IMG/VR virus record: IMGVR_UViG_3300047552_001451
Coordinates: 1-20,191 of that record
Length of the DNA: 20,191 bases
DNA from: a virus
Direction: 5' to 3' (one strand)
The notes under the pieces are model-generated. The model was not told where the DNA came from. It searched no databases and was given only the letters and a program-made list of their open reading frames with translations. The translations under genes and the position numbers were made by a program. The stretch's first letter is position 1. Each line of letters opens with the position of its first letter. Positions 6,237 to 19,290 of this stretch are shown in pieces.

Positions 6237-7382
6237 GTGATCTGTGTTGACCGTGCTCTTTGCTCTTTTGAAAAACACATTGTCGTGAATGGCAAGGTCT
6301 CTCTTGTTAAGAAGCGTCCTGTCTGTGACTGGATTGGAAATTCCGTCAGTCATGTTGATCCATATTGTCTTCGAACGCTTTTTAATCTTGAAAATAAGAC
6401 TTTTGATGTGACTCCCCCGGTACGATATGTCGAAATGACTCGTTTCTTTGGTCGCAAAGATACTTGGGAATTTGTTCACCCAACGCATCGCTTATGGTGG
6501 GCTGTTGATTTGGCAAAGGCAGCAGAAGATCTCGCAATGAAATGTCAGCGAGTTTACCATTGTGAAATCTTTGTTCCAACTAGTCAGATCTTTGAACAAC
6601 TGAAGCCTTGGCGCATTGATCCTTCTATCGCTAACTCTGACGATGTCAACGCACTTACCTGTATGCCTGACGCCGACGGTTGGGTATATCCACCAACATA
6701 TAACCGCTTTGGCACCAGAACAGGTCGCTTGACCATCACACATGGTCCGCGTGTGCTCACTGTCAAACAAGATACACGTGCTCTCTTTAGACCGATCGAT
6801 GAGAATCATGAGTTGGTGCAGTTTGATTTCTCTTCGCTTGAAGCGCGCGTTGCCTTAGCACTCGCCGGTCGTGAGGTGAGCGTTGATGCCGATCCGTATC
6901 ATATCATTGCTAAGCTGATGAATGTCAAGGAGCGCGACGATGCAAAGAGCGCTACATTTGCTGCTCTTTACTCTGACCCCACTGCAACTACACAAAAGGA
7001 TCCTCGTGTATCAAGGGTGCGTCGCATTTTTAAGTTGGGTGAGACATTTGCCTCTTTAAAACAGAATTGGCAGCGCGAAGGCGCGGTTCGCAATCTGTAC
7101 GGAAGACTTATTTCTGAGCCAGAAGAGGCAACACTCTACAACAATTACGTTCAGTCAACGGGAGCAGATGTAGTGCTTCTTGGTTTTAAACAGTTGATCA
7201 CTGTATTACTCGAACTTGAGTGTGTACCGCATTTTTTACTTCACGATGCTCTTTTTGTGTCAGTTCCCAAAAGAAGACTTCAAGAAGCTTCACAGGTCGC
7301 TATCGAGGGCGTTACGGTTAAGAATTTTGCGCTTTCATTCCCAATTAAGACGTCGATCGTAGAAAAGAGACCTACGGTTTGA
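6237..7382 (+). CDS. short family A DNA polymerase (polymerase domain only)
   Basis: A 381-residue protein with the polymerase core of the Pol I family. Motif A is FDFSSLEARVALALAG (metal-binding D197, E202). Upstream is the TGRL block (about 162-165). D219-x-x-H222 corresponds to the D-x-H before the O helix. Motif B/O-helix has R233, K237, F241 and Y245 at the canonical four-residue steps. Motif C is LLHDALFVSV, with H336-D337 followed by Ala where most family members have Glu. Residues 287-315 (NLYGR, QSTGADVVLLGF) match the region leading to motif C. There is no 3'-5' exonuclease domain, and the 5'-3' nuclease is a separate gene at 12913-13899. Start is GTG 6237, 19 bases after the structural gene, with no clear ribosome site. 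An ATG near 6435 is an alternative but would discard about 66 residues. It presumably makes phage DNA with the helicase and SSB encoded nearby. Confidence 0.85.
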   Translation: MICVDRALCSFEKHIVVNGKVSLVKKRPVCDWIGNSVSHVDPYCLRTLFNLENKTFDVTPPVRYVEMTRFFGRKDTWEFVHPTHRLWWAVDLAKAAEDLAMKCQRVYHCEIFVPTSQIFEQLKPWRIDPSIANSDDVNALTCMPDADGWVYPPTYNRFGTRTGRLTITHGPRVLTVKQDTRALFRPIDENHELVQFDFSSLEARVALALAGREVSVDADPYHIIAKLMNVKERDDAKSATFAALYSDPTATTQKDPRVSRVRRIFKLGETFASLKQNWQREGAVRNLYGRLISEPEEATLYNNYVQSTGADVVLLGFKQLITVLLELECVPHFLLHDALFVSVPKRRLQEASQVAIEGVTVKNFALSFPIKTSIVEKRPTV

Positions 7383-8304: not shown

Positions 8305-9237
8305 ATGGCAATTGACATTAATGCAATTCGTAAACGTATGGAAGCCATCTCTGGCGGCGGAAATAAAAATAATAACAAGTTCAAGCGTTGGACTTATGAA
8401 GCACCAGGCACCTATCGACTTCGTGTGCTTCCTTTCAAAAATACTGATCCGGGTATGCCGTTTCCTGAACGAATTGTGTATTTTGGCATTAGTGCTGACG
8501 GTAAGGGTATGATTGTTTCACCTGAGAATGCCGGTCAACAAGATCCTATTAAGAATCTTCGCATAAGTCTTTTCAATGATGCCAAGAACGCTGCTACGCC
8601 TGCTGAAGCTGACGAACTGCAGGAAATGGCTAAAAAGCTCAAGTCGAAGACAGTAAACTGTGTTGCCGTAATCGATCGTGCTCACGAAGAAGAAGGCCCT
8701 CAAATGTGGGGTCCCAATTGGACTGATGTGCAGCAGTTACTTGCGCTTTTCCTTACTGAGGTGGGTGATTACACAGACGTTGGACCCGATGGTTGCGATC
8801 TTGAACTTGTTGTCACACCTGGTAAAAAAATAGTACAGAGCGGAAAACGAAAAGGACAGCCAGTCTTAGAAGCAAAGATTAACGCTTGTCGAAAGAATAG
8901 TCCGGCCGCAAAGGATGATGCTCAACTTCAAGCTTGGCTTGATACTATGCCAATTGTTGATGAGTATTATCCTGTTACTTCAACTGAAGAGACAGCTAGA
9001 AAACTACAAGAGTGGCTTGATGCTGGCGTTACAAATGTTCATGGCGATGACACTGAGCGTGGCGGAACTTCTAAAGAAGTAAAACAAGAAGAAAAGGTTG
9101 TTAAAACTGAAACCGTCAAAACTATTGACAAGAAAACCGCGCCAAAGCCACCTGTGACGAAGAAACCACTTCTTCAATCTGTTGAAGATGATCTCGATTC
9201 AGCGTTAGATGACCTTAACAGTAATGATGACTCCTGA
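8305..9237 (+). CDS. single-stranded DNA-binding protein, T4 gp32-like
   Basis: A 310-residue protein with the layout of phage gp32-type SSBs. A basic, glycine/asparagine-rich N-terminal segment (about 8-28) would serve self-association. A core OB-like domain follows, with RWTYEAPGTYRLRVLPF (28-44), the MPFPERIVYF strand, CVAVIDRAHEEEGPQMWGPN (119-138) and a strand pair about 165-195. A linker rich in Lys and Pro follows, and the last residues are strongly acidic (EDDLDSALDDLNSNDDS), the usual docking tail for replication partners. The cysteine/histidine set of the T4 gp32 zinc site is not apparent. It would coat ssDNA during replication and recombination, working with the RecA encoded downstream. 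A strong terminator follows the gene. Confidence 0.8.
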   Translation: MAIDINAIRKRMEAISGGGNKNNNKFKRWTYEAPGTYRLRVLPFKNTDPGMPFPERIVYFGISADGKGMIVSPENAGQQDPIKNLRISLFNDAKNAATPAEADELQEMAKKLKSKTVNCVAVIDRAHEEEGPQMWGPNWTDVQQLLALFLTEVGDYTDVGPDGCDLELVVTPGKKIVQSGKRKGQPVLEAKINACRKNSPAAKDDAQLQAWLDTMPIVDEYYPVTSTEETARKLQEWLDAGVTNVHGDDTERGGTSKEVKQEEKVVKTETVKTIDKKTAPKPPVTKKPLLQSVEDDLDSALDDLNSNDDS

Positions 9238-9383: not shown

Positions 9384-10319
9384 ATGTTTTTGAGAATTGA
9401 TACTAGTGAAGGACCCCGAGGTGGACGACGTCTGATTGTTATTGCTTGTGATGTGTGCGGAAAAGAACGAAGCGTAGCCTACTGTGTTACCACACTCAAC
9501 CGTTATCAACAAAGAACATCATTTTGTAGTTCAACGTGTCAAAATGAATCGCAAAAAAATGGCAAATTACGTGATCAGCTTAATGTTTACTTTGTTGAGA
9601 AATACGGTGTTAAAACACCACTTCTAACAGAAAAAGCAATACAAGCGAAAAATTTAGTCATAAAGAACACATATCAAAAATCTAGACAAACGTTGTTGGA
9701 ACGTTACGGTGTGGATAATCCCATGCGCATTAACGACGTTGCTCAAAAACAACAAGATGCTATCCGTTCTAGTAGAAACGGTCTTCATCATTTTGAGACT
9801 GATGAGTCTCTAGAAAAGAGAAGACGTACTTGCATTGAGCGTTACGGTCACGATCATCCAATGAAGGTACCAAGCATAGTAACGAGCTTTCCTTTTAAGG
9901 AAGTCTGGAGAAAAAGTCACCTCAAGAAAAAGGAAAATGGGACGTACATCCAATCAGCATCAGAGAGAACATTTGGTGCTTGGCTGATTATGCTCTTTGG
10001 AAAGAAAAACGTTTCTAAAGGTGTGAACGTGAATGATTGGAGTATTGATTTTGAATGCGAGGTAGAAGGGTTCAAGTTTTGGATTCAATATGATGGTGTG
10101 TATTGGCATGGACTTGATGCACCTAGTGAGGTCATTCAAGCAAGACAAGGACCTAGAGCTCATAGGATAGCAAATGTCGTCAGACGCGATGAACAACAAA
10201 ACCAATGGTTCGTCAAACAAGGATTGTTGCTTTTGAGAGTTACAGACAAGGAATTTGAGAGGTTTATAAAATGTCAAAGAAGAAAGAAACGAATGAACAA
10301 GCAAGTAAGCTCGAAGTAG
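9384..10319 (+). CDS. free-standing homing endonuclease, EDxHD/Vsr-like
   Basis: A 311-residue protein with a modular layout. An N-terminal treble-clef-type zinc finger has C22-x2-C25 and C48-x3-C52. Three spaced copies of a Y-G-x-x-x-P module follow (YGVKTP at 74, YGVDNP at 108, YGHDHP at 154), DNA-contact repeats typical of phage homing endonucleases. The C-terminal nuclease domain (about 190-290) holds E194 in SASERTFGAWL, D222 in WSIDF, and D237-x4-H242-x2-D245 in IQYDGVYWHGLD, close to the EDxHD family exemplified by I-Bth0305I (my recall, not searched). GGAGA at 9372-9376 supports ATG 9384. The last 49 bases overlap recA in another frame. It probably cuts a nearby site, recA being the obvious candidate, to spread itself or the neighbouring intein. 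Confidence 0.85.
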   Translation: MFLRIDTSEGPRGGRRLIVIACDVCGKERSVAYCVTTLNRYQQRTSFCSSTCQNESQKNGKLRDQLNVYFVEKYGVKTPLLTEKAIQAKNLVIKNTYQKSRQTLLERYGVDNPMRINDVAQKQQDAIRSSRNGLHHFETDESLEKRRRTCIERYGHDHPMKVPSIVTSFPFKEVWRKSHLKKKENGTYIQSASERTFGAWLIMLFGKKNVSKGVNVNDWSIDFECEVEGFKFWIQYDGVYWHGLDAPSEVIQARQGPRAHRIANVVRRDEQQNQWFVKQGLLLLRVTDKEFERFIKCQRRKKRMNKQVSSK

Positions 10320-11029
10320 CATCTGACAACACTGATAAAATGGTGCAAGACCTCATCAAGGATCTGAACCGAGAACACCAGACGCGAGTCGCTTGGAACC
10401 TTGGTACAGATTTATCACCTACACATGTCAAGCGATGGGTGTCTACCGGATGTCTACAGCTTGATTATGCTGTTTCAAATTGCCGCGATGGCGGTCTACC
10501 CGAGGGTCGAATCATTGAGATATATGGACCTCCCAGTATCGGAAAGTCACACATCGCAGCTCAAATATGTAGATCCTGTCAAAAACTTGGTGGAATCGCT
10601 GTTTACATTGATACAGAAAATGCAGTGAATCCTGAAAACCTAACAGTTCTTGGTGTTGACGTTACTAAACGATTTATTTACGTTGAAACTGGCTGTGTTG
10701 AGGACACTTTTCAAGTGATGGAATCCATCATCACAAAGGTGAAGGCTTCAAACAAAGATGTTCCTGTTGTGATTATTTGGGACTCAGTAGCAGCGACACC
10801 TGCAAAAGCAGAGCTCGAGGCCGATTATGACAAGGATAGCATTGGTCTCCAAGCTCGACAACTTAGCAAGGGTTTTCGTAAAGTTACACAGCTCATCGGT
10901 AATCAAAACGTCACACTTGTCTGTCTAAACCAGATCAGGACGAAGATTGGTGTGATGTATGGTGATCCAATGTGTGTAGATCCATACACGACGAAAGTGA
11001 AGGTTCGAAAGCGGAGGACCTCCTCATGA
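10271..11029 (+). CDS. recA: RecA recombinase, N-terminal half fused to N-terminal split intein
   Basis: A 252-residue protein: RecA residues 1-234 plus an 18-residue N-intein. Walker A is GPPSIGKS (86-93), followed by YIDTENAVNPE (112-122), the Walker B strand VVIIWDSVAATP (166-177) and loop residues NQIRTKIGVMYGDPM (220-234). The RecA part then stops where E. coli RecA continues into its T-T-G-G DNA-binding loop 2. From C235 the sequence is CVDPYTTKVKVRKRRTSS, a block A intein start, ending at TGA 11027-11029. The rest of RecA is encoded by the gene at 11130 after a C-intein, so two proteins must trans-splice to give a 410-residue RecA. ATG 10271 has GAGAGG 8 bases upstream. RecA would drive strand exchange in phage recombination and replication restart. 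It is closer to bacterial RecA than to T4 UvsX in the loop 2 region. Confidence 0.88.
   Translation: MSKKKETNEQASKLEVASDNTDKMVQDLIKDLNREHQTRVAWNLGTDLSPTHVKRWVSTGCLQLDYAVSNCRDGGLPEGRIIEIYGPPSIGKSHIAAQICRSCQKLGGIAVYIDTENAVNPENLTVLGVDVTKRFIYVETGCVEDTFQVMESIITKVKASNKDVPVVIIWDSVAATPAKAELEADYDKDSIGLQARQLSKGFRKVTQLIGNQNVTLVCLNQIRTKIGVMYGDPMCVDPYTTKVKVRKRRTSS
10973..11026 (+). mobile_element. N-terminal half of split intein in RecA (18 residues)
   Basis: Starts at Cys codon 10973-10975, directly after the GDPM of RecA, and ends at the stop at 11027. It holds only block A and the following basic strand. Blocks B, F and G are all on the other protein (11130-11507). Most natural split inteins break about 100 residues in; a break this near the N-terminus is the rare 'atypical' kind known from a few phage-derived proteins such as AceL-TerL and the Lake Vida phage inteins. 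Confidence 0.85.
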
Positions 11030-11146
11030 GTATTACACGATACATGGAACCTCAATGTTGTTGTCGTATGGGAAAATGATTTGATGAACAATACAGCTGT
11101 CGTATTTGAACATTTGATAAAGGAGTTACATGTTGATCGAAAATAA
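11030..11146 (+). pseudogene. relic of a Vsr-like homing endonuclease between the split-intein halves
   Basis: Immediately after the TGA that ends the N-intein, and in the same frame, 38 codons stay open to TAA 11144-11146. They read VLHDTWNLNVVVVWENDL and then a helix-like run ending HLIKELHVDRK. The W-x-x-x-V-V-V-V-W-E core matches the final strand of Vsr-type nucleases (typically G-W-x-V-x-V-V-W-E), followed by the usual C-terminal helix. It has no suitable start and no catalytic part, so it is read as the leftover C-terminus of an endonuclease gene that once sat between the intein halves. Its last 17 bases overlap the C-intein gene. The endonuclease at 9384 has a different C-terminus, so this is not simply a copy of it. 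A chance ORF cannot be excluded. Confidence 0.55.
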
Positions 11147-11507
11147 TGATTTTGAGTATGAAGAGCTATCGTTGGCTGAGCTTGCAACACGATTTAACAT
11201 CGTTGATTTCACATCTCCTGATGAACTTAATGTTGAAGATCATGGATATGAGATACTGAGCGTTGATGAGCAAGGAAACGAAGTTTATCAACCTTTAACT
11301 CATTTTATTGTCAAACCGAGTGTGTTATCTCACTATGAGCTTGGAACGTTGAGAGGAACTGGCGCTCATCGTGTGCTTCACGGCAAAGAGTGGGTTGCAC
11401 TGAAGGATCATCCACATGCTAAACGTGTTGACAAAAGCATGGAGGTTGTTGATGTTTCTGTGGCAAACACACAATGTTACATTGCCAACGGACAGATAAA
11501 TCACAAT
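11130..11507 (+). mobile_element. C-terminal half of split intein in RecA (126 residues)
   Basis: Residues 1-126 carry nearly all the splicing domain: the post-block A helix EELSLAELATRF (11-22), block B with G-T-G-A-H80-R-V-L, block F VVDVSVANTQCYIANG (106-121), and block G Q-I-N-H125-N126. The following extein residue is Thr127, one of the three permitted +1 nucleophiles. There is no endonuclease domain. The usual block F histidine appears replaced by Gln115 or Cys116. Confidence 0.85.
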
Positions 11508-12038
11508 ACCACCTCCGGCGGTCTTGCACTCCCATTTCATGCTTCTACACGTATCTCGCTTACCGGTGGAAAGCGTCTTGAAGACCCGAAGACTAAAGAG
11601 TTTTATGGTATCGAAGTTAACGCTTATGTCACAAAGAATAAGGTTGCGGCTCCATTTCGGAAAATCTCATTCGAGATCCATTTTGGTAAAGGTATTGCAG
11701 AAAGTGAGACTTTATTTGACGTCTTACGACAGTACTGTGACGATCACAAAATAATCAAAAATGGAAAAGAAATGAAGATTTCAGGCACTAGTGCTTGGAA
11801 AGAATTGCTTGTTAATGACGTGAAAACTGGTGAAGTTCTCGTTGAGAAAAAATTTTACAAAAGCGATTTTGCAGCAATGATGCGAGATTCACAGTACCGT
11901 TCGTACATTCTTGATATCGCCGAAGTTGCTTTAGTTCGTACTGTCGAACAGCAAAAAGCTGACCAGTATGCAGCTGGTGAAATAGATGAAGACGGTTATG
12001 AAAACCTAACGAAGATATCAGAGACAACTAAAAAGTAA
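11130..12038 (+). CDS. recA: C-terminal split intein fused to RecA C-terminal half
   Basis: A 302-residue protein, separately translated from ATG 11130 with a strong AAAGGAG site at 11119-11125. Residues 1-126 are the C-intein, ending YIANGQINHN at H125-N126. Residues 127-302 are RecA, beginning TTSGGLALPFHASTRISL, which lines up with the T-T-G-G-x-A-L-x-F-Y-A-S of bacterial RecA just after the break in the upstream gene. Then come FRKISFEIHFGKGI and a C-terminal helical region ending in a mixed-charge tail. Alone it lacks the ATP-binding site and would be inactive, so splicing to the 10271 product is presumably needed. It shares the transcript with the upstream half. Confidence 0.88.
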   Translation: MLIENNDFEYEELSLAELATRFNIVDFTSPDELNVEDHGYEILSVDEQGNEVYQPLTHFIVKPSVLSHYELGTLRGTGAHRVLHGKEWVALKDHPHAKRVDKSMEVVDVSVANTQCYIANGQINHNTTSGGLALPFHASTRISLTGGKRLEDPKTKEFYGIEVNAYVTKNKVAAPFRKISFEIHFGKGIAESETLFDVLRQYCDDHKIIKNGKEMKISGTSAWKELLVNDVKTGEVLVEKKFYKSDFAAMMRDSQYRSYILDIAEVALVRTVEQQKADQYAAGEIDEDGYENLTKISETTKK

Positions 12039-13912: not shown

Positions 13913-15322
13913 TTGAGCGAAGTGATGACCGAGAGCGGGTCTAGTGGACCGACGTTCGGACAATATGGACAACACTTTCAAAAGAAAGTTGTGCAAGCTC
14001 TTCTTTCCGACCCTTCATGGGCCGAGCAAATGTCTGAAGTGCTTGAACCGGCTTATTTTGATCTTAAATACCTAAATTACTTGGCCGATCGATATCTTTC
14101 GTATTCTAAAAAATACAAAGCATATCCATCACTTCCGATGCTTGTTACTATTGTCAAAGATGAATTGAAACAAGGTAACGATCTTGCTTTAAAAGAACAG
14201 GTTGTTCAATATCTGAAGACACTTCGAGCAGCGCCAGACATGGGCGATTTACCACTTGTCAAGGATAAAGCGCTTGATTTTTGCCGTCGTCAATCATTAA
14301 AACGAGGTCTTGAGAAGGTTGTCGATCTCATTGAAACTGAGAAATACGAAGCCATCGTCGACACTATCAAGAAAGCCGTTTCTGCTGGTACAACTACAGG
14401 TCTTGGTCATGATCTTACCGAAGATGTTGAAGCACGTTACGTCGCTGATCGTCGTCTTGTTATTCCAACTTGTCTCTCTGAGTTAGATGCACCAAAGATT
14501 CTCAATGGTGGATCGGGCCGCGGCGAGCTTCATGTTGTCATTGCACCAACAGGTGTTGGTAAGAGTCACTTGATGACATACATTGGTGCAAATGCGATGC
14601 GACAGGGCTACAACGTTCTGTACTTTACGATGGAGCTCTCAGAGGCCAAAGTTGGTCTTAGATTTGATTCCAACTTTACCGGTATCGATACTAACGAGAT
14701 CATTGACCGTAAAGACGAAGTTCTTAAGTTTTATGCTGAGAACAAGCTTGGCAAATTGAAGATCAAATATTTTCCTACTAATGAGCCAACGGTCAATACA
14801 TTGAGAGCACACTTGGAAAAGTTAGCGTTAAAGGGGTTTATCCCCGATGTTGTTCTTGTTGATTATGCCGATATTGTCCGTTCAAGTCGAATGTATGAGC
14901 AACCGCGTCTTGAAATGAAGCTTGTATACGAGGAGCTTCGTGCCCTTGCTGTTGAACGTAACATCGCTCTTTGGACGGCTTCTCAGAGTAACAGAGAAGG
15001 TTCTAATGTTGAGGTTGTTGACATGAATAATATGAGCGAAGCTTACGCCAAAGCGTTCATTTGTGACCTTATTGTTACGCTTTCACGACGTCCCGGTGAG
15101 AAAGCAAGTGGTCTTGGACGTCTCTACATTGCTAAAAACCGAAATGGTATTGACGGACTAGTTTTCCCGATCAAAATTGATACTGCACGTAGTCTTTTTG
15201 AGATCGTTGGCGAAACGACAACGCCAGATGAAGTACAAGCGACAGCCGAGCAAGATGTACGACAAAAACTTCGAGACCGCTTTGCTAAATTCAATGACAT
15301 GAACCTTAAGAAGGTTAGTTGA
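13913..15322 (+). CDS. replicative DNA helicase, DnaB/T4 gp41-type
   Basis: A 469-residue RecA-fold hexameric helicase. An N-terminal helical domain (1-165) joins a C-terminal motor with Walker A APTGVGKSH (about 210-218), the helix NVLYFTMELSE, Walker B VVLVDYADIV (about 313-322), the SQSNREG sensor (near 360) and a final arginine-bearing strand LYIAKNRNGIDG (near 403). It unwinds DNA ahead of the fork and would load with a primase, which is not in this window. TTG 13913 has AAGGAGAT at 13899-13906, overlapping the exonuclease stop. No intein is seen here, although phage DnaB genes often carry one. Confidence 0.92.
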   Translation: MSEVMTESGSSGPTFGQYGQHFQKKVVQALLSDPSWAEQMSEVLEPAYFDLKYLNYLADRYLSYSKKYKAYPSLPMLVTIVKDELKQGNDLALKEQVVQYLKTLRAAPDMGDLPLVKDKALDFCRRQSLKRGLEKVVDLIETEKYEAIVDTIKKAVSAGTTTGLGHDLTEDVEARYVADRRLVIPTCLSELDAPKILNGGSGRGELHVVIAPTGVGKSHLMTYIGANAMRQGYNVLYFTMELSEAKVGLRFDSNFTGIDTNEIIDRKDEVLKFYAENKLGKLKIKYFPTNEPTVNTLRAHLEKLALKGFIPDVVLVDYADIVRSSRMYEQPRLEMKLVYEELRALAVERNIALWTASQSNREGSNVEVVDMNNMSEAYAKAFICDLIVTLSRRPGEKASGLGRLYIAKNRNGIDGLVFPIKIDTARSLFEIVGETTTPDEVQATAEQDVRQKLRDRFAKFNDMNLKKVS

Positions 15323-15363
15323 CCGTGAATAGCTTACCATCTGACACACGCTCTCAAGGACAC

Positions 15364-18300
15364 ATGAACGATCAAAAAGCTAAAGTTTTCACACATGAAG
15401 AAGCGTTGACCGCTTCAACTGCGTATTTCAAGGGCGATGAGCTCGCAGCAAACGTTTTCATCACCAAATACGCGCTGCGAAATGAAGAAGGAGAGCTTCT
15501 TGAGCAAACCCCTGAGGACATGCATCGTCGATTGGCACGCGAGTTTGCTCGTATCGAGCTGAAATATCCGCATTCCATGAGTGAGGAGACCATCTTTAAC
15601 CTCCTTGATCGTTTTCGTTACATCGTTCCACAAGGTTCGCCAATGAGTGCCATTGGGAACCCAACACAGGTCCAGTCACTGTCAAATTGTTTTGTCATTG
15701 CTTCGCCTTTTGATTCATACGGATCAATTGCACGTGCTGACGAGGAGATTCTCCAAATCCAAAAGAGACGAGGCGGTGTTGGTGTTGATCTAAGTGGCAT
15801 TCGTCCGCGAACATTGTCTGTTAAGAATGCCGCTGGAACCAGTGATGGTCTTGGCATCTTCATGGAACGGTATTCGAACACAACTCGGGAAGTTGCGCAA
15901 GGTGGGCGTCGTGGAGCCTTGATGGAAACAGTTAATGTTTGTCATCCAGATATTGAGACTTTTATCGACATCAAGAACATCAAGGACAAGAACGGCGAAC
16001 GCACAAAAGTTACGGGCGCAAATGTATCAGTGCGTGTTACTGATGACTTCATGCGTGCTGTCGAGGCCGAGAAAGACTTCACGTTACGTTGGCCTGTAGA
16101 GGCTGACTCGGCTAGTGCAAAATTCACGCGTGTTGTACCTGCATTGCACATCTGGAAAAAGATGATGCACGCAGCCTGGGACTCCGCTGAACCCGGCATT
16201 CTTTATTGGGACACTGTTAAACGCCACTCGATGGCGGACGAGTTTGCTGATAAGGGGTTCGAGACGATCTGCACGAACCCGTGTTTTGCTGGCGATACGT
16301 TGATCGCAGTAGCGGATGGACGACACGCTGTCAGCATCAAGCAACTAGCCGAAGAGGGTAAAGATGTTGATGTGTATAGTGTTGACACACGAACCGGGAT
16401 GATCTCAATTAAACGTGGCGTCAACCCTCGCGTCACACGTGAGAATGCCAAGCTTGTCCGCGTTCATCTTGACGATGGGACGTGGTTGGACACGACATCC
16501 GATCACAATTTCCTCACGATTGATGGCGAAAAGGTCGAGGCGAAGGATTTGAAGATCGGGCAGAGCTTGCCGCGTTTCTTGAAGCGTCTTGAGCCCGTAA
16601 AGCAGGGTGGGAACGATTACGTTCGAGTAAGCACGAATACTCGCGATTCGTCTAAGGGAAAAATCTTTGAACATCGTCTCGTCGCCGAACGCGCTTACCC
16701 CGAACGATGGGCGGAGCTGTACGATACTCAAAAGCAATGCGGCTGGGTCCAAGGCGGGCTTGTCGTCCATCACAAGGATCGCGATCCGCAGAACAACACT
16801 CCTGGTAACCTCGAGGTTATGACCTGGTCCGACCACACCAAGCTTCACGCCGAACAGGACAACCAGGGCGAGAACAACCCACGATATATCGACGTGTCCA
16901 ACGAGGAGGTCGAGCAGCACGCGATCGAGCTGACAACGATGCTCGGTCGAAGGTTCTCGCGCAAGGAATGGATCGCCTACGCACTTGACAAACAGTTGCC
17001 GGTTCACTTCGACGACGGTCCCAAGCGCGGCAACGCGGTGATCTCCGAGATGGCGACCAGGGTCGCGACGTCGCTCGGTTACCACCATGTTGATGTTGAT
17101 CCGCGGTTGGTGCGAACGCTCCACGAGATGGAGAAGCAAGGTTATGATGCACGCATCGATGGTCATCGTGTGTTAGTCAGCAAGACTTGCGAACACTGCT
17201 CAGCGAGCTACGAGGTCGAGCACATCAAGCGGCAATTTTGGTACTGCTCGCAGCCATGTGCGCTCGCGAAGGTCAACTCCGACAAGGAGTTCCACGCCAG
17301 GCGAACGGCGAGTACGGTCGCGACTTACGCAAACCGCGCGCCGGAATTGCGTCGCAACCAAGCCAAAGTATGGTCAGAGCTCAAGTTCAAGCTCGAACGC
17401 ATGCCGATGCTCAAAGAGTGGGAAGCGGAATGTCAAGCTCAAGGCATCACTCGACGCTTAAAGACGAAGTTTGGCTTTCAATCGTGGAAGGAGCTCTCGC
17501 AAGCTGGCCAGGATTACAACCATAAGGTCACGCGAGTTGAAGAGCTTGAGGGTGAACACATCGTGTACAACCTCACCGTTGAGGACAACCACACAGTGGC
17601 GATTGTCACTAAAATGGGCGATCCAACGACGAAAACCCTCTGTGACGGTGTGATTGTTGCGCAATGCTCCGAGCTCCCCCTCTCGGCATATGACTCTTGT
17701 AGGTTGCTGCTGCTGAACCTGCTCTCCTACGTCAAGGACCCATATTCCGCGAACGCGCGCTTCGACTTCGCATTGTTTATCAAACATGCGTGGCTAGCCC
17801 AACGTCTAATGGACGACCTTGTTGATCTTGAGCTTGAAGCTATTGATCGTATTATCACAAAGATTCAATCCGATCCCGAGCCAGAAAGCGAGAAGATACG
17901 TGAGTTGTTGGTGTGGAAGCGCATCCGCTCGGCATGTGCAAATGGACGTCGCACTGGCACTGGCATCACAGCTCTGGGTGACACATTAGCGGCACTTGGA
18001 CTCATCTATGGTTCAAATGATTCGATTGCTGTAACCGAAAACATCTATAAAGCTCTTGCTGTTGCGACACATGAGTCGAGCGTACAGATGGCCAAGGAGC
18101 GTGGCCCGTTTCCGGCGTGGGAACCGGGTCGTTATCAGAACAACGAGTTCGCCAATCGACTCATAAAAGAATGCGAACAAGAGACTAACGAAAACTTTTT
18201 GAATTTCGGGCGTCGCAATATTGCGCTCACCACAACTGCGCCGGCCGGCAGCGTGTCTACACTCACTCAAACAACTAGCGGTATTGAGCCAGCATATCTG

Positions 18301-19290
18301 CTCCATTATAAACGTCGCAAGAAGCTGCGCGAGACTGAGCTTGCGACTGGGGCCAGGGTTGATTTTGTTGACGCTCTTGGTGATAAGTGGCAGGAATACG
18401 ATGTTTATCACCACGGACTCAAAATGTGGATGGATATAACTGGTGAGTCCGATATTACAAAGTCACCGTATCACAAAGCAACAAGCAATGACATCGATTG
18501 GATTGCTTCCGTTGACTTACTTGCTGCTGCACAAAAGTGGACTGAGCACTCTATTTCAAAAACTATTAATCTACCGAAACACGTCACCGAGGAACTTGTT
18601 TCTGAAGTATACATGCGAGCTTGGAAGCTTGGCATCAAGGGTGTGACTGTCTATCGTGATGGTTCACGCTCTGGTGTACTTGTAGCGACGGACGAGAAGA
18701 AAGAAAAAGAAGAAACACCTAAACAGCCGGACGGGTTATTCGATCGACATGCTCCGAAGCGACCTAAGTCTCTTGTGTGTGATATCAATCGTGCTACTGT
18801 AAAAGGCGAGAAATACGTCGTGCTTGTCGGCTTACTTGATGATCGGCCCTATGAAGTATTTTGCGGCCTTAGTAACAAACTTGAGGTACCAAAGAAGTTT
18901 GAGAAGGGCAAGCTTATCAAAAACGGTAAAAACAAGGATAGCTTATCAACATATAACTTACACATTGACCTTGGTGATAATGACGAACTTGTTGTGAAAG
19001 ATGTAGCAACTATGTTTGATAATGCAACATACAGCTCTTTCACTCGTATGGTGTCACTGTCTCTGCGACATGGGGTGCCAATTCAATTCGTATGTGAGCA
19101 GATGAGCAAGTCAATCGATGAGGATATGTCTTCTTTCGCAAAGGTATTGTCGCGGGTTTTGAAAAAATATATTCCTGACGGAACTGCACCAGCAAGCGAG
19201 AAAAAGTGCCTTAACTGCAGTTCGACGTCTGTGGCCTACCAAGCTGGATGTGTCACATGTTTATCATGTGGCTCGAGCAAGTGTGGTTAG
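15364..19290 (+). CDS. nrdJ: class II (B12-dependent) ribonucleotide reductase with in-frame intein
   Basis: A 1308-residue precursor that would give an 847-residue enzyme after losing its 461-residue intein. It reduces ribonucleotides to deoxyribonucleotides for phage DNA synthesis. N-terminal part: YFKGDELAANVFITKYAL, the redox cysteine in SLSNCFVIASP, GGVGVDLSGIRP and QGGRRGALMETV. The active-site N-P-C-S-E is assembled only after splicing: TNP before the intein, CSELPLSAYDSC after it. Then come TTTAPAGSVS and SGIEPAYLLHYKRRKK. The C-terminus has the CLNC and CVTCLSCGSSKCG zinc/thiol-transfer cysteines that mark adenosylcobalamin-dependent NrdJ; no separate small subunit is needed. ATG 15364 has AAGGA three bases upstream and gives a natural N-terminus; TTG 15319, overlapping the helicase stop and preceded by AAGAAGG, is an alternative. 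Confidence 0.92.
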   Translation: MNDQKAKVFTHEEALTASTAYFKGDELAANVFITKYALRNEEGELLEQTPEDMHRRLAREFARIELKYPHSMSEETIFNLLDRFRYIVPQGSPMSAIGNPTQVQSLSNCFVIASPFDSYGSIARADEEILQIQKRRGGVGVDLSGIRPRTLSVKNAAGTSDGLGIFMERYSNTTREVAQGGRRGALMETVNVCHPDIETFIDIKNIKDKNGERTKVTGANVSVRVTDDFMRAVEAEKDFTLRWPVEADSASAKFTRVVPALHIWKKMMHAAWDSAEPGILYWDTVKRHSMADEFADKGFETICTNPCFAGDTLIAVADGRHAVSIKQLAEEGKDVDVYSVDTRTGMISIKRGVNPRVTRENAKLVRVHLDDGTWLDTTSDHNFLTIDGEKVEAKDLKIGQSLPRFLKRLEPVKQGGNDYVRVSTNTRDSSKGKIFEHRLVAERAYPERWAELYDTQKQCGWVQGGLVVHHKDRDPQNNTPGNLEVMTWSDHTKLHAEQDNQGENNPRYIDVSNEEVEQHAIELTTMLGRRFSRKEWIAYALDKQLPVHFDDGPKRGNAVISEMATRVATSLGYHHVDVDPRLVRTLHEMEKQGYDARIDGHRVLVSKTCEHCSASYEVEHIKRQFWYCSQPCALAKVNSDKEFHARRTASTVATYANRAPELRRNQAKVWSELKFKLERMPMLKEWEAECQAQGITRRLKTKFGFQSWKELSQAGQDYNHKVTRVEELEGEHIVYNLTVEDNHTVAIVTKMGDPTTKTLCDGVIVAQCSELPLSAYDSCRLLLLNLLSYVKDPYSANARFDFALFIKHAWLAQRLMDDLVDLELEAIDRIITKIQSDPEPESEKIRELLVWKRIRSACANGRRTGTGITALGDTLAALGLIYGSNDSIAVTENIYKALAVATHESSVQMAKERGPFPAWEPGRYQNNEFANRLIKECEQETNENFLNFGRRNIALTTTAPAGSVSTLTQTTSGIEPAYLLHYKRRKKLRETELATGARVDFVDALGDKWQEYDVYHHGLKMWMDITGESDITKSPYHKATSNDIDWIASVDLLAAAQKWTEHSISKTINLPKHVTEELVSEVYMRAWKLGIKGVTVYRDGSRSGVLVATDEKKEKEETPKQPDGLFDRHAPKRPKSLVCDINRATVKGEKYVVLVGLLDDRPYEVFCGLSNKLEVPKKFEKGKLIKNGKNKDSLSTYNLHIDLGDNDELVVKDVATMFDNATYSSFTRMVSLSLRHGVPIQFVCEQMSKSIDEDMSSFAKVLSRVLKKYIPDGTAPASEKKCLNCSSTSVAYQAGCVTCLSCGSSKCG
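16282..17664 (+). mobile_element. intein with HNH homing endonuclease inside NrdJ
   Basis: 461 residues from Cys1 (codon 16282) to Gln461 (codon 17662), inserted before the radical-forming cysteine (TGC 17665). Block A is CFAGDTLIAVADGR, block B TTSDHNFLTIDG, block F HIVYNLTVEDNHTVAIVT and block G CDGVIVAQ followed by Cys. The last two residues are Ala-Gln instead of the usual His-Asn. An HNH nuclease lies at about intein residues 161-195 (VVHHKDRDPQNNTPGNLEVM, then paired histidines). A CEHC...YCSQPC zinc-finger and helical DNA-contact region follow to about residue 400. GC is clearly higher than in the surrounding gene (57-65% in three hand-counted 60-base rows against 33-40% in flanking rows), suggesting recent arrival. 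Confidence 0.9.

What the first reader, a model, noticed from the sequence alone, without database searches (positions are those of the whole stretch)
10271..12038. recA fractured by a split intein with an extremely early break
RecA is encoded as two separate genes, each with its own ribosome site. The first ends with 18 intein residues (block A only), the second begins with 126 intein residues holding blocks B, F and G. The extein junction GDPM|TTSGG restores a continuous RecA loop 2, the DNA-contacting region, so the recombinase should be inactive until trans-splicing. Natural split inteins broken this close to the N-terminus are rare; those described are from phage-derived genes. A short N-piece with Cys1 and a Thr +1 residue would be a useful new member.
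Basis: partly seen in the sequence, partly recalled or inferred. Interest (0 to 1): 0.85.

Follow-up and report, generated by a model that had tools for sequence, protein, structure and literature searches.

The report
Split-intein phage recombinase with nuclease fossil
A phage DNA-recombination gene is broken into two genes whose protein halves are probably stitched together by a split intein, and the gap between them holds the worn-down tail of the selfish endonuclease gene that most likely caused the break.

Summary
A UvsX/RecA gene is encoded as two ORFs (10271-11029 and 11130-12038). They end and begin in an 18-residue Int-N and a 126-residue Int-C, with Cys1, block-B His, block-F Asp, C-terminal His-Asn and Thr+1 all present. 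The break lies in the turn after the second beta strand, the known atypical "S1" split position (VidaL, PolB16 OarG).

(1) The 100-nt gap encodes the C-terminal relic of a Vsr/EDxHD homing endonuclease: it ranks first of 14,713 translated segments, and intact endonuclease genes sit at the same place in nine related loci. (2) The break is not rare here: of 23 representative loci carrying this intein at the same uvsX site, 20 are split and 3 contiguous; many close relatives have an empty site. (3) The intein moves: a contiguous copy and a copy split by a 1-kb endonuclease gene are about 99% identical in DNA, with flanks only 73-80% identical.

Best explanation: an endonuclease gene inserted into the S1 turn of a small uvsX intein, fractured the gene, and later decayed, leaving a trans-splicing split intein. 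Splicing is untested. New member of a known kind; the allele series makes the origin of atypical split inteins testable.

The parts
10271..10972 (+). N-extein: first 234 residues of the phage UvsX/RecA recombinase, ending ...GVMYGDPM
   Evidence: Pfam RecA and phrog_97 matches; 82-88% identical to L003-L006
10973..11029 (+). Int-N, 18 residues CVDPYTTKVKVRKRRTSS plus TGA stop; the conserved core is the first 12 residues (10973-11008)
   Evidence: 10 of 12 core residues identical to the contiguous intein L083; related core in 22 other loci
11030..11146 (+). Relic of the C-terminus of a Vsr/EDxHD homing endonuclease ORF (VLHDTWNLNVVVVWENDLMNNTAVVFEHLIKELHVDRK*); the recognisable part is 11054-11119; it overlaps the Int-C start by 17 nt
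   Evidence: Top of 14,713 six-frame segments with a profile of ten endonuclease C-termini, E 0.0019, 17.6 bits against 9.5 for the next; intact ORFs at the same place in nine loci overlap the Int-C start by 4-25 nt
11119..11125 (+). Shine-Dalgarno-like AAAGGAG of the second gene
   Evidence: Sequence
11130..11507 (+). Int-C, 126 residues; block B His80 (11367-11369), block F Asp108 (11451-11453), C-terminal His125-Asn126 (11502-11507)
   Evidence: These residues are invariant in 16 aligned family members; HINT fold by AlphaFold2, pLDDT 90 and Foldseek
11508..12038 (+). C-extein: last 176 residues of UvsX, beginning Thr+1 (TTSGG), and stop
   Evidence: Pfam RecA model position 197 onward, E 2e-10; continuous with the N-extein in the intein-less relatives L004-L006

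Best explanation
This is a naturally split, class-1-type intein in phage uvsX, broken at the S1 turn (after the second beta strand). The UvsX N-half carrying Int-N and the C-half carrying Int-C are translated separately and associate. Int-N supplies the first strands and Cys1 of one HINT domain. Cys1 attacks the Met-Cys bond, the ester moves to Thr+1, Asn126 cyclises with help from His125, and a 410-residue UvsX with an intact loop 2 is released. The break arose when an EDxHD (Vsr-fold) homing endonuclease gene inserted into the S1 turn of a small contiguous uvsX intein, bringing a stop codon and, at its 3' end, the start region of Int-C. The endonuclease was later deleted down to its last ~38 codons, probably kept because they overlap the ribosome site and start of Int-C. 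Shown by computation: the anatomy, the homologues in each state, the relic and the mobility of relatives. Inferred: splicing chemistry, the order of events in this lineage, and why the relic persists.
For: (a) Homologous contiguous intein of 133 aa at the same site in the sister lineage L083, Int-C 61% identical. (b) Catalytic residues invariant in 16 members. (c) Window Int-C alone models as a HINT fold; the contiguous relative models at pLDDT 94 with strands 8-13 and 16-21, and Z 14.8 to VidaL 6VGV; the break follows residue 12 of the homologous core. (d) The halves are under constraint: codon positions 1+2 are 72% identical against 38% at position 3 for Int-C versus L083 (N-extein 92/36, C-extein 76/32). 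(e) Nine distinct split loci carry an intact endonuclease ORF between the halves (L085, L087, L091, L129, L130, L132-L135), and L143 a diverged one; the family profile hits Vsr structures (1cw0 E 4e-4) and I-Bth0305I (3r3p, E 0.04). (f) L089 keeps both ends of an internally deleted endonuclease gene in a ~300-nt gap, an intermediate between the intact and window states. (g) The window gap is the best of 14,713 segments for the endonuclease C-terminus. (h) L085 (split) and L088 (contiguous): intein ~99% identical in DNA, bounded at the intein ends, flanks 73-80%.
Against: No splicing experiment exists. The relic match is short (22 aligned residues) and moderate in score. Its frame relative to Int-C is phase 2, whereas 8 of 9 intact loci checked are phase 1 (L134 is also phase 2), so an indel or a separate insertion must be assumed. 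Eight of the 20 split loci show adjoining or overlapping ORFs with no endonuclease and longer Int-N (28-41 aa), so a split need not imply a recent endonuclease. Three contiguous tips on a mostly split tree fit re-fusion as well as primary splitting.
Confidence: 0.86

Rival explanations
1. Same split intein, but the 100-nt gap is unrelated to any endonuclease; the break came from a plain insertion or frameshift in a contiguous intein.
For: The relic is short; splits without any endonuclease exist at the same turn in related loci (L093, L096, L099, L101, L115, L119, L121, L123).
Against: The gap segment scores 17.6 bits against 9.5 for the next of 14,713 segments, lies exactly where intact endonuclease C-termini lie in nine relatives, and overlaps the Int-C start as theirs do.
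Confidence: 0.1
2. Broken intein: the two halves no longer splice and uvsX is a pseudogene or works as two separate pieces.
For: Int-C diverges faster than the UvsX N-extein from the sister locus (62% against 87%); no activity data.
Against: All catalytic residues kept; first/second codon positions conserved far above third in both exteins and the intein; strong ribosome site on the second gene; the break cuts RecA loop 2, so separate pieces are unlikely to work (knowledge of RecA).
Confidence: 0.08
3. Assembly or sequencing artefact: a contiguous intein broken by errors in a metagenomic contig.
For: Single metagenomic contig; reads not available; near-identical records may be left out by the tools.
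Against: Frames differ and the Int-C frame has stops in the gap; the gap contains a homologous endonuclease tail; the same arrangement recurs in 19 other representative loci.
Confidence: 0.03

Closest known systems
VidaL split intein (PDB 6VGV; Neugebauer 2017, Burton 2020, cited in PMC13014065)
   Same: Cysteine-dependent, natural S1 break after beta strand 2, Int-N of 16 aa; model of the contiguous relative aligns at Z 14.8 over 114 residues
   Different: Only 17% sequence identity; characterised in vitro, whereas this one is not
PolB16 OarG split intein (PDB 8CPN; PMC10189870)
   Same: Natural S1 break, Int-N 15 aa; same HINT fold (Z 12.2)
   Different: Cysteine-less (Ser1, Ser+1), in a PolB gene, slow; the window intein has Cys1 and Thr+1 in uvsX
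Fractured genes of Dassa et al. 2009 (split intein halves with a free-standing Vsr-like endonuclease gene between them; content from memory, paper not held)
   Same: Same gene arrangement in the relatives L085, L087, L091, L129-L135; the endonuclease is Vsr-like
   Different: Window keeps only an endonuclease relic; here the insertion point is the S1 turn, and contiguous, split and empty alleles of one site are seen together
I-Bth0305I, EDxHD homing endonuclease (PDB 3R3P; described in PMC3943268; its location in a phage recA intron is from memory)
   Same: Family profile matches 3r3p (E 0.04) and Vsr (E 4e-4)
   Different: Intron-encoded and intact; here intein-splitting in relatives and a relic in the window
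AceL-TerL and GOS-TerL split inteins
   Same: Natural breaks near the N-terminus
   Different: Break at S2, after the first helix (PMC13014065); the window breaks one element earlier

Membership tests
Intein (class-1 splicing domain) | Cys1 or Ser1 at the N-splice junction | tested here: met
   Cys1 at 10973; CVDP conserved in 23 loci except the L119/L121 pair, which read CVDL
Intein (class-1 splicing domain) | Block B TxxH histidine, block F Asp, C-terminal His-Asn and Cys/Ser/Thr+1 | tested here: met
   His80, Asp108, His125-Asn126 invariant over 16 sequences; Thr+1 at 11508
Intein (class-1 splicing domain) | HINT fold | tested here: met
   Models at pLDDT 90 and 94; Foldseek and VIA-align matches are inteins at the top
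Intein (class-1 splicing domain) | Protein splicing activity | not testable with these tools
   Needs expression and mass spectrometry
Atypical S1 split intein | Natural break between beta strands 2 and 3, Int-N about 15-20 aa | tested here: met
   Int-N 18 aa; homologous core ends at residue 12 and the L083 model has strands 8-13 and 16-21; S1 definition from PMC13014065
Fractured gene (split intein plus free-standing endonuclease between the halves) | Intact endonuclease gene between the halves | tested here: not met
   Only a ~38-codon C-terminal relic in the window; intact gene in nine relatives
EDxHD / Vsr-fold homing endonuclease (for the gap relic) | Catalytic FGDxWH motif region | tested here: not met
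   The relic starts after the catalytic region; only the terminal VVVVWEND strand-helix remains. It is filed as a remnant, not as an endonuclease
VidaL intein lineage | Clear sequence relationship to VidaL | tested here: inconclusive
   17% identity in the structural alignment; a profile search of PDB sequences did not list it; same fold and split position only

The most novel reading that the evidence does not exclude
Splitting is reversible: in this mobile uvsX intein family the endonuclease gene both fractures the intein and is later lost, sometimes restoring a contiguous intein. L088 would be a healed copy of an L085-like split intein: ~99% identical intein DNA, a linker several residues longer than in other contiguous members, and a derived Gly where nearly all close relatives have Glu (TEGL against TEEL). 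The window would be the alternative end state, in which the endonuclease decays but the halves stay separate.
Probability: 0.35. Interest if true: 0.72.

Novelty: new member of a known kind. Interest (0 to 1): 0.58.

Why it matters
Atypical split inteins with very short Int-N pieces are valuable for attaching synthetic peptides to proteins, and few natural ones have been characterised. This site gives a family of them, with Int-N of 15-24 residues in the endonuclease and relic groups, and none was found in the sequenced phage genomes searched. For evolution, one uvsX site shows empty, contiguous, split-with-endonuclease and split-with-relic states. One pair of contiguous and split copies is almost identical, so how an early break arises, and whether it can revert, can be tested directly with natural alleles.

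Tried and rejected
Close-relative scan with the C half found nothing; using the N half and then an alignment of Int-C worked. tblastn of the Int-C half in GenBank phages gave matches that lay mainly in the C-extein, and three relatives' Int-C gave no match. The same Int-C alignment found no relative in the bacterial and archaeal genome collection. The full-length endonuclease profile gave only a weak score to the gap (4.7 bits), and a C-terminal profile from five sequences was ambiguous (E 1.3); adding the endonucleases found later made it clear.

The idea that the upstream endonuclease ORF (9384-10319) belongs to the same family was not supported (hhalign probability 0.3%). An RNA hairpin before the endonuclease gene is present in L085 and L091 (z about -3) but not supported in L089 or the window. 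Tracing the L088 linker to the endonuclease gene of L085 gave only a chance-level match (33 of 300 shuffles). Stop-codon read-through was rejected: it would enter the relic frame and end at 11144, out of frame with Int-C. The Dassa 2009 and Burton 2020 papers are not held.

Full report
Observation. The window is a 20,191-base virus record. Two ORFs, 10271-11029 and 11130-12038, encode the two parts of a RecA/UvsX recombinase. The first ends with CVDPYTTKVKVRKRRTSS, the second starts with 126 non-RecA residues ending NGQINHN before TTSGG. Removing these gives 410 residues with a continuous GDPM-TTSGG loop, as in the intein-less relatives L004-L006, whose uvsX is 82-88% identical in the N part.

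It is an intein. The closest intein-bearing relative, L003/L083 (87% identical UvsX N part), has a contiguous 133-residue intein at exactly this point; its C-terminal 119 residues are 61% identical to the window Int-C and its first 12 residues are 83% identical to the window Int-N core. His80, Asp108, His125 and Asn126 are invariant in an alignment of 16 family members. The window Int-C alone is modelled as an intein fold (pLDDT 90; best Foldseek match Mtu RecA intein, E 4e-4). The contiguous L083 intein is modelled at pLDDT 94 and aligns with many inteins, including VidaL (Z 14.8, 17% identity) and PolB16 OarG (Z 12.2). In that model strands run 8-13 and 16-21; the window's homologous Int-N core ends at residue 12. 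So the break is in the turn after the second strand, the position called S1 in PMC13014065, where VidaL and PolB16 OarG are split.

Family and states. An Int-C alignment scan and an endonuclease alignment scan of IMG/VR gave 23 representative loci (window included) carrying this intein at the same GDPx|[T/S][T/S]xGG site, with small variants such as GDQ (L130, L133), GDA (L101) and GNPE (L084) before Cys1. Three are contiguous (L083, L084, L088). Ten carry an endonuclease ORF between the halves (L085, L087, L091, L129, L130, L132, L133, L134, L135 and the diverged L143). Two carry short remnants (window and L089). Eight have directly adjoining or overlapping halves without an endonuclease and with Int-N of 28-41 residues. 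Int-N is 15-24 residues in the endonuclease and relic groups. Most other uvsX relatives found have an empty site. No member was found in 50,697 GenBank phage records with three different Int-C queries.

The endonuclease. A profile of four of these ORFs matches Vsr endonuclease structures (1cw0, E 4e-4) and the EDxHD homing endonuclease I-Bth0305I (3r3p, E 0.04) over its C-terminal domain, and all carry an E[C/L]FGD[F/Y]WH motif. In the nine close members the endonuclease stop codon lies 4-25 nt inside the start of Int-C, so the 3' end of the endonuclease gene supplies the ribosome-binding region of Int-C.

The gap in the window. In the frame of the N half, after the TGA, the gap reads VLHDTWNLNVVVVWENDLMNNTAVVFEHLIKELHVDRK and stops 17 nt inside Int-C. 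With a profile of ten endonuclease C-termini this segment is first of 14,713 six-frame segments from the window and intein-less loci, at 17.6 bits and E 0.0019; the next has 9.5 bits. A good single match is L130: VVFWEDDLRNNLELIKQQL against VVVWENDLMNNTAVVFEHL, reached by none of 1,000 shuffles. L089 shows the intermediate stage: its ~300-nt gap holds both the N-terminal and C-terminal ends of the endonuclease with the middle deleted and stops inside. The phase of the relic relative to Int-C differs from eight of the nine intact genes, so an indel or a separate insertion is needed.

Mobility. L085 (split with endonuclease) and L088 (contiguous) have Int-C DNA 99% identical, while their flanking exteins are 80% and 73% identical. 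The near-identical block begins about at the Cys1 codon, with one mismatch at the base before it and 20 matching bases before that, and ends 5 bases after the last intein codon. That is the expected trace of recent homing. Trees disagree in the same sense: inteins of L084, L085, L088 and L089, whose RecA is only 27-32% identical to the window N part, group with those of L087 and L091, whose UvsX is 62-64% identical. In the window's own clade (97/90 support) one of five uvsX genes has a contiguous intein, one a split intein and three none.

Direction of change. On the Int-C tree contiguous against split needs at least three changes. Either contiguous inteins were split several times, or split ones were re-fused. 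L084 (RYEHITEEIT) looks like a precise contiguous form of the split sequences RYE...ITEEL. L088 has a longer linker and a Gly in place of the common Glu at TEEL, which fits an imprecise re-fusion, but its linker could not be traced to the endonuclease gene. This is left as the novel case.

Constraint. Against L083, codon positions 1+2 are 72% identical in Int-C, 92% in the N-extein and 76% in the C-extein, with third positions at 38%, 36% and 32%. dS is saturated, so no branch-specific test was possible, but both halves look like maintained coding sequence.

Literature. PMC13014065 and PMC10189870 were read for atypical split inteins, PMC3943268 for EDxHD endonucleases. The fractured-gene paper of Dassa and colleagues (2009) is cited in held papers but could not be read; its content is from memory. 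The window fits that scheme with the endonuclease worn away.

Verdict. Trans-splicing is likely but not shown.

Noticed in passing
window 9384-10319: A second, unrelated homing-endonuclease-like ORF (phrog_3339 E 3e-11; DUF7487) sits between the gene upstream of uvsX (8305-9237) and uvsX and overlaps the uvsX start by 49 nt; in the close relatives L003-L006 the two genes are only about 230-250 nt apart, so it was probably inserted in the window's lineage.
   Followed up: partly
window 15319-19290: Class II ribonucleotide reductase (NrdJ type) with a contiguous intein of roughly 450 residues that carries an HNH endonuclease domain: a second intein in the same 20 kb.
   Followed up: no
L093 4360-4776, L123 3639-4054, L101 4385-4596, L099 1939-2173: Group I introns (Rfam RF00028; L101 and L099 score below the gathering cut-off) interrupt uvsX a few codons after the split intein, so an intein and an intron occupy the same loop-2 hot spot in tandem.
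   Followed up: partly
L085 and L088, intein region: Near-identical intein DNA in two divergent phages, contiguous in one and split by a 1-kb endonuclease gene in the other; the identity block ends at the intein borders.
   Followed up: yes
L093 2521-2742 and 3478-3906: The uvsX N-extein is itself interrupted by about 0.7 kb around residues 86-91, near the Walker A motif, in addition to the split intein and the intron downstream.
   Followed up: no
L103 3623-4957 (also L143): Int-C is preceded in its ORF by about 120 extra residues of unknown kind, unlike all other members.
   Followed up: no
L085 345-410 and L091 2925-3000: Stable hairpins (z about -3) cover the ribosome site of the inserted endonuclease gene, suggesting translational control brought in with it.
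   Followed up: partly
window 6237-7382: Family A DNA polymerase-like ORF of only 381 residues matching the polymerase domain in two stretches; unusually short.
   Followed up: no
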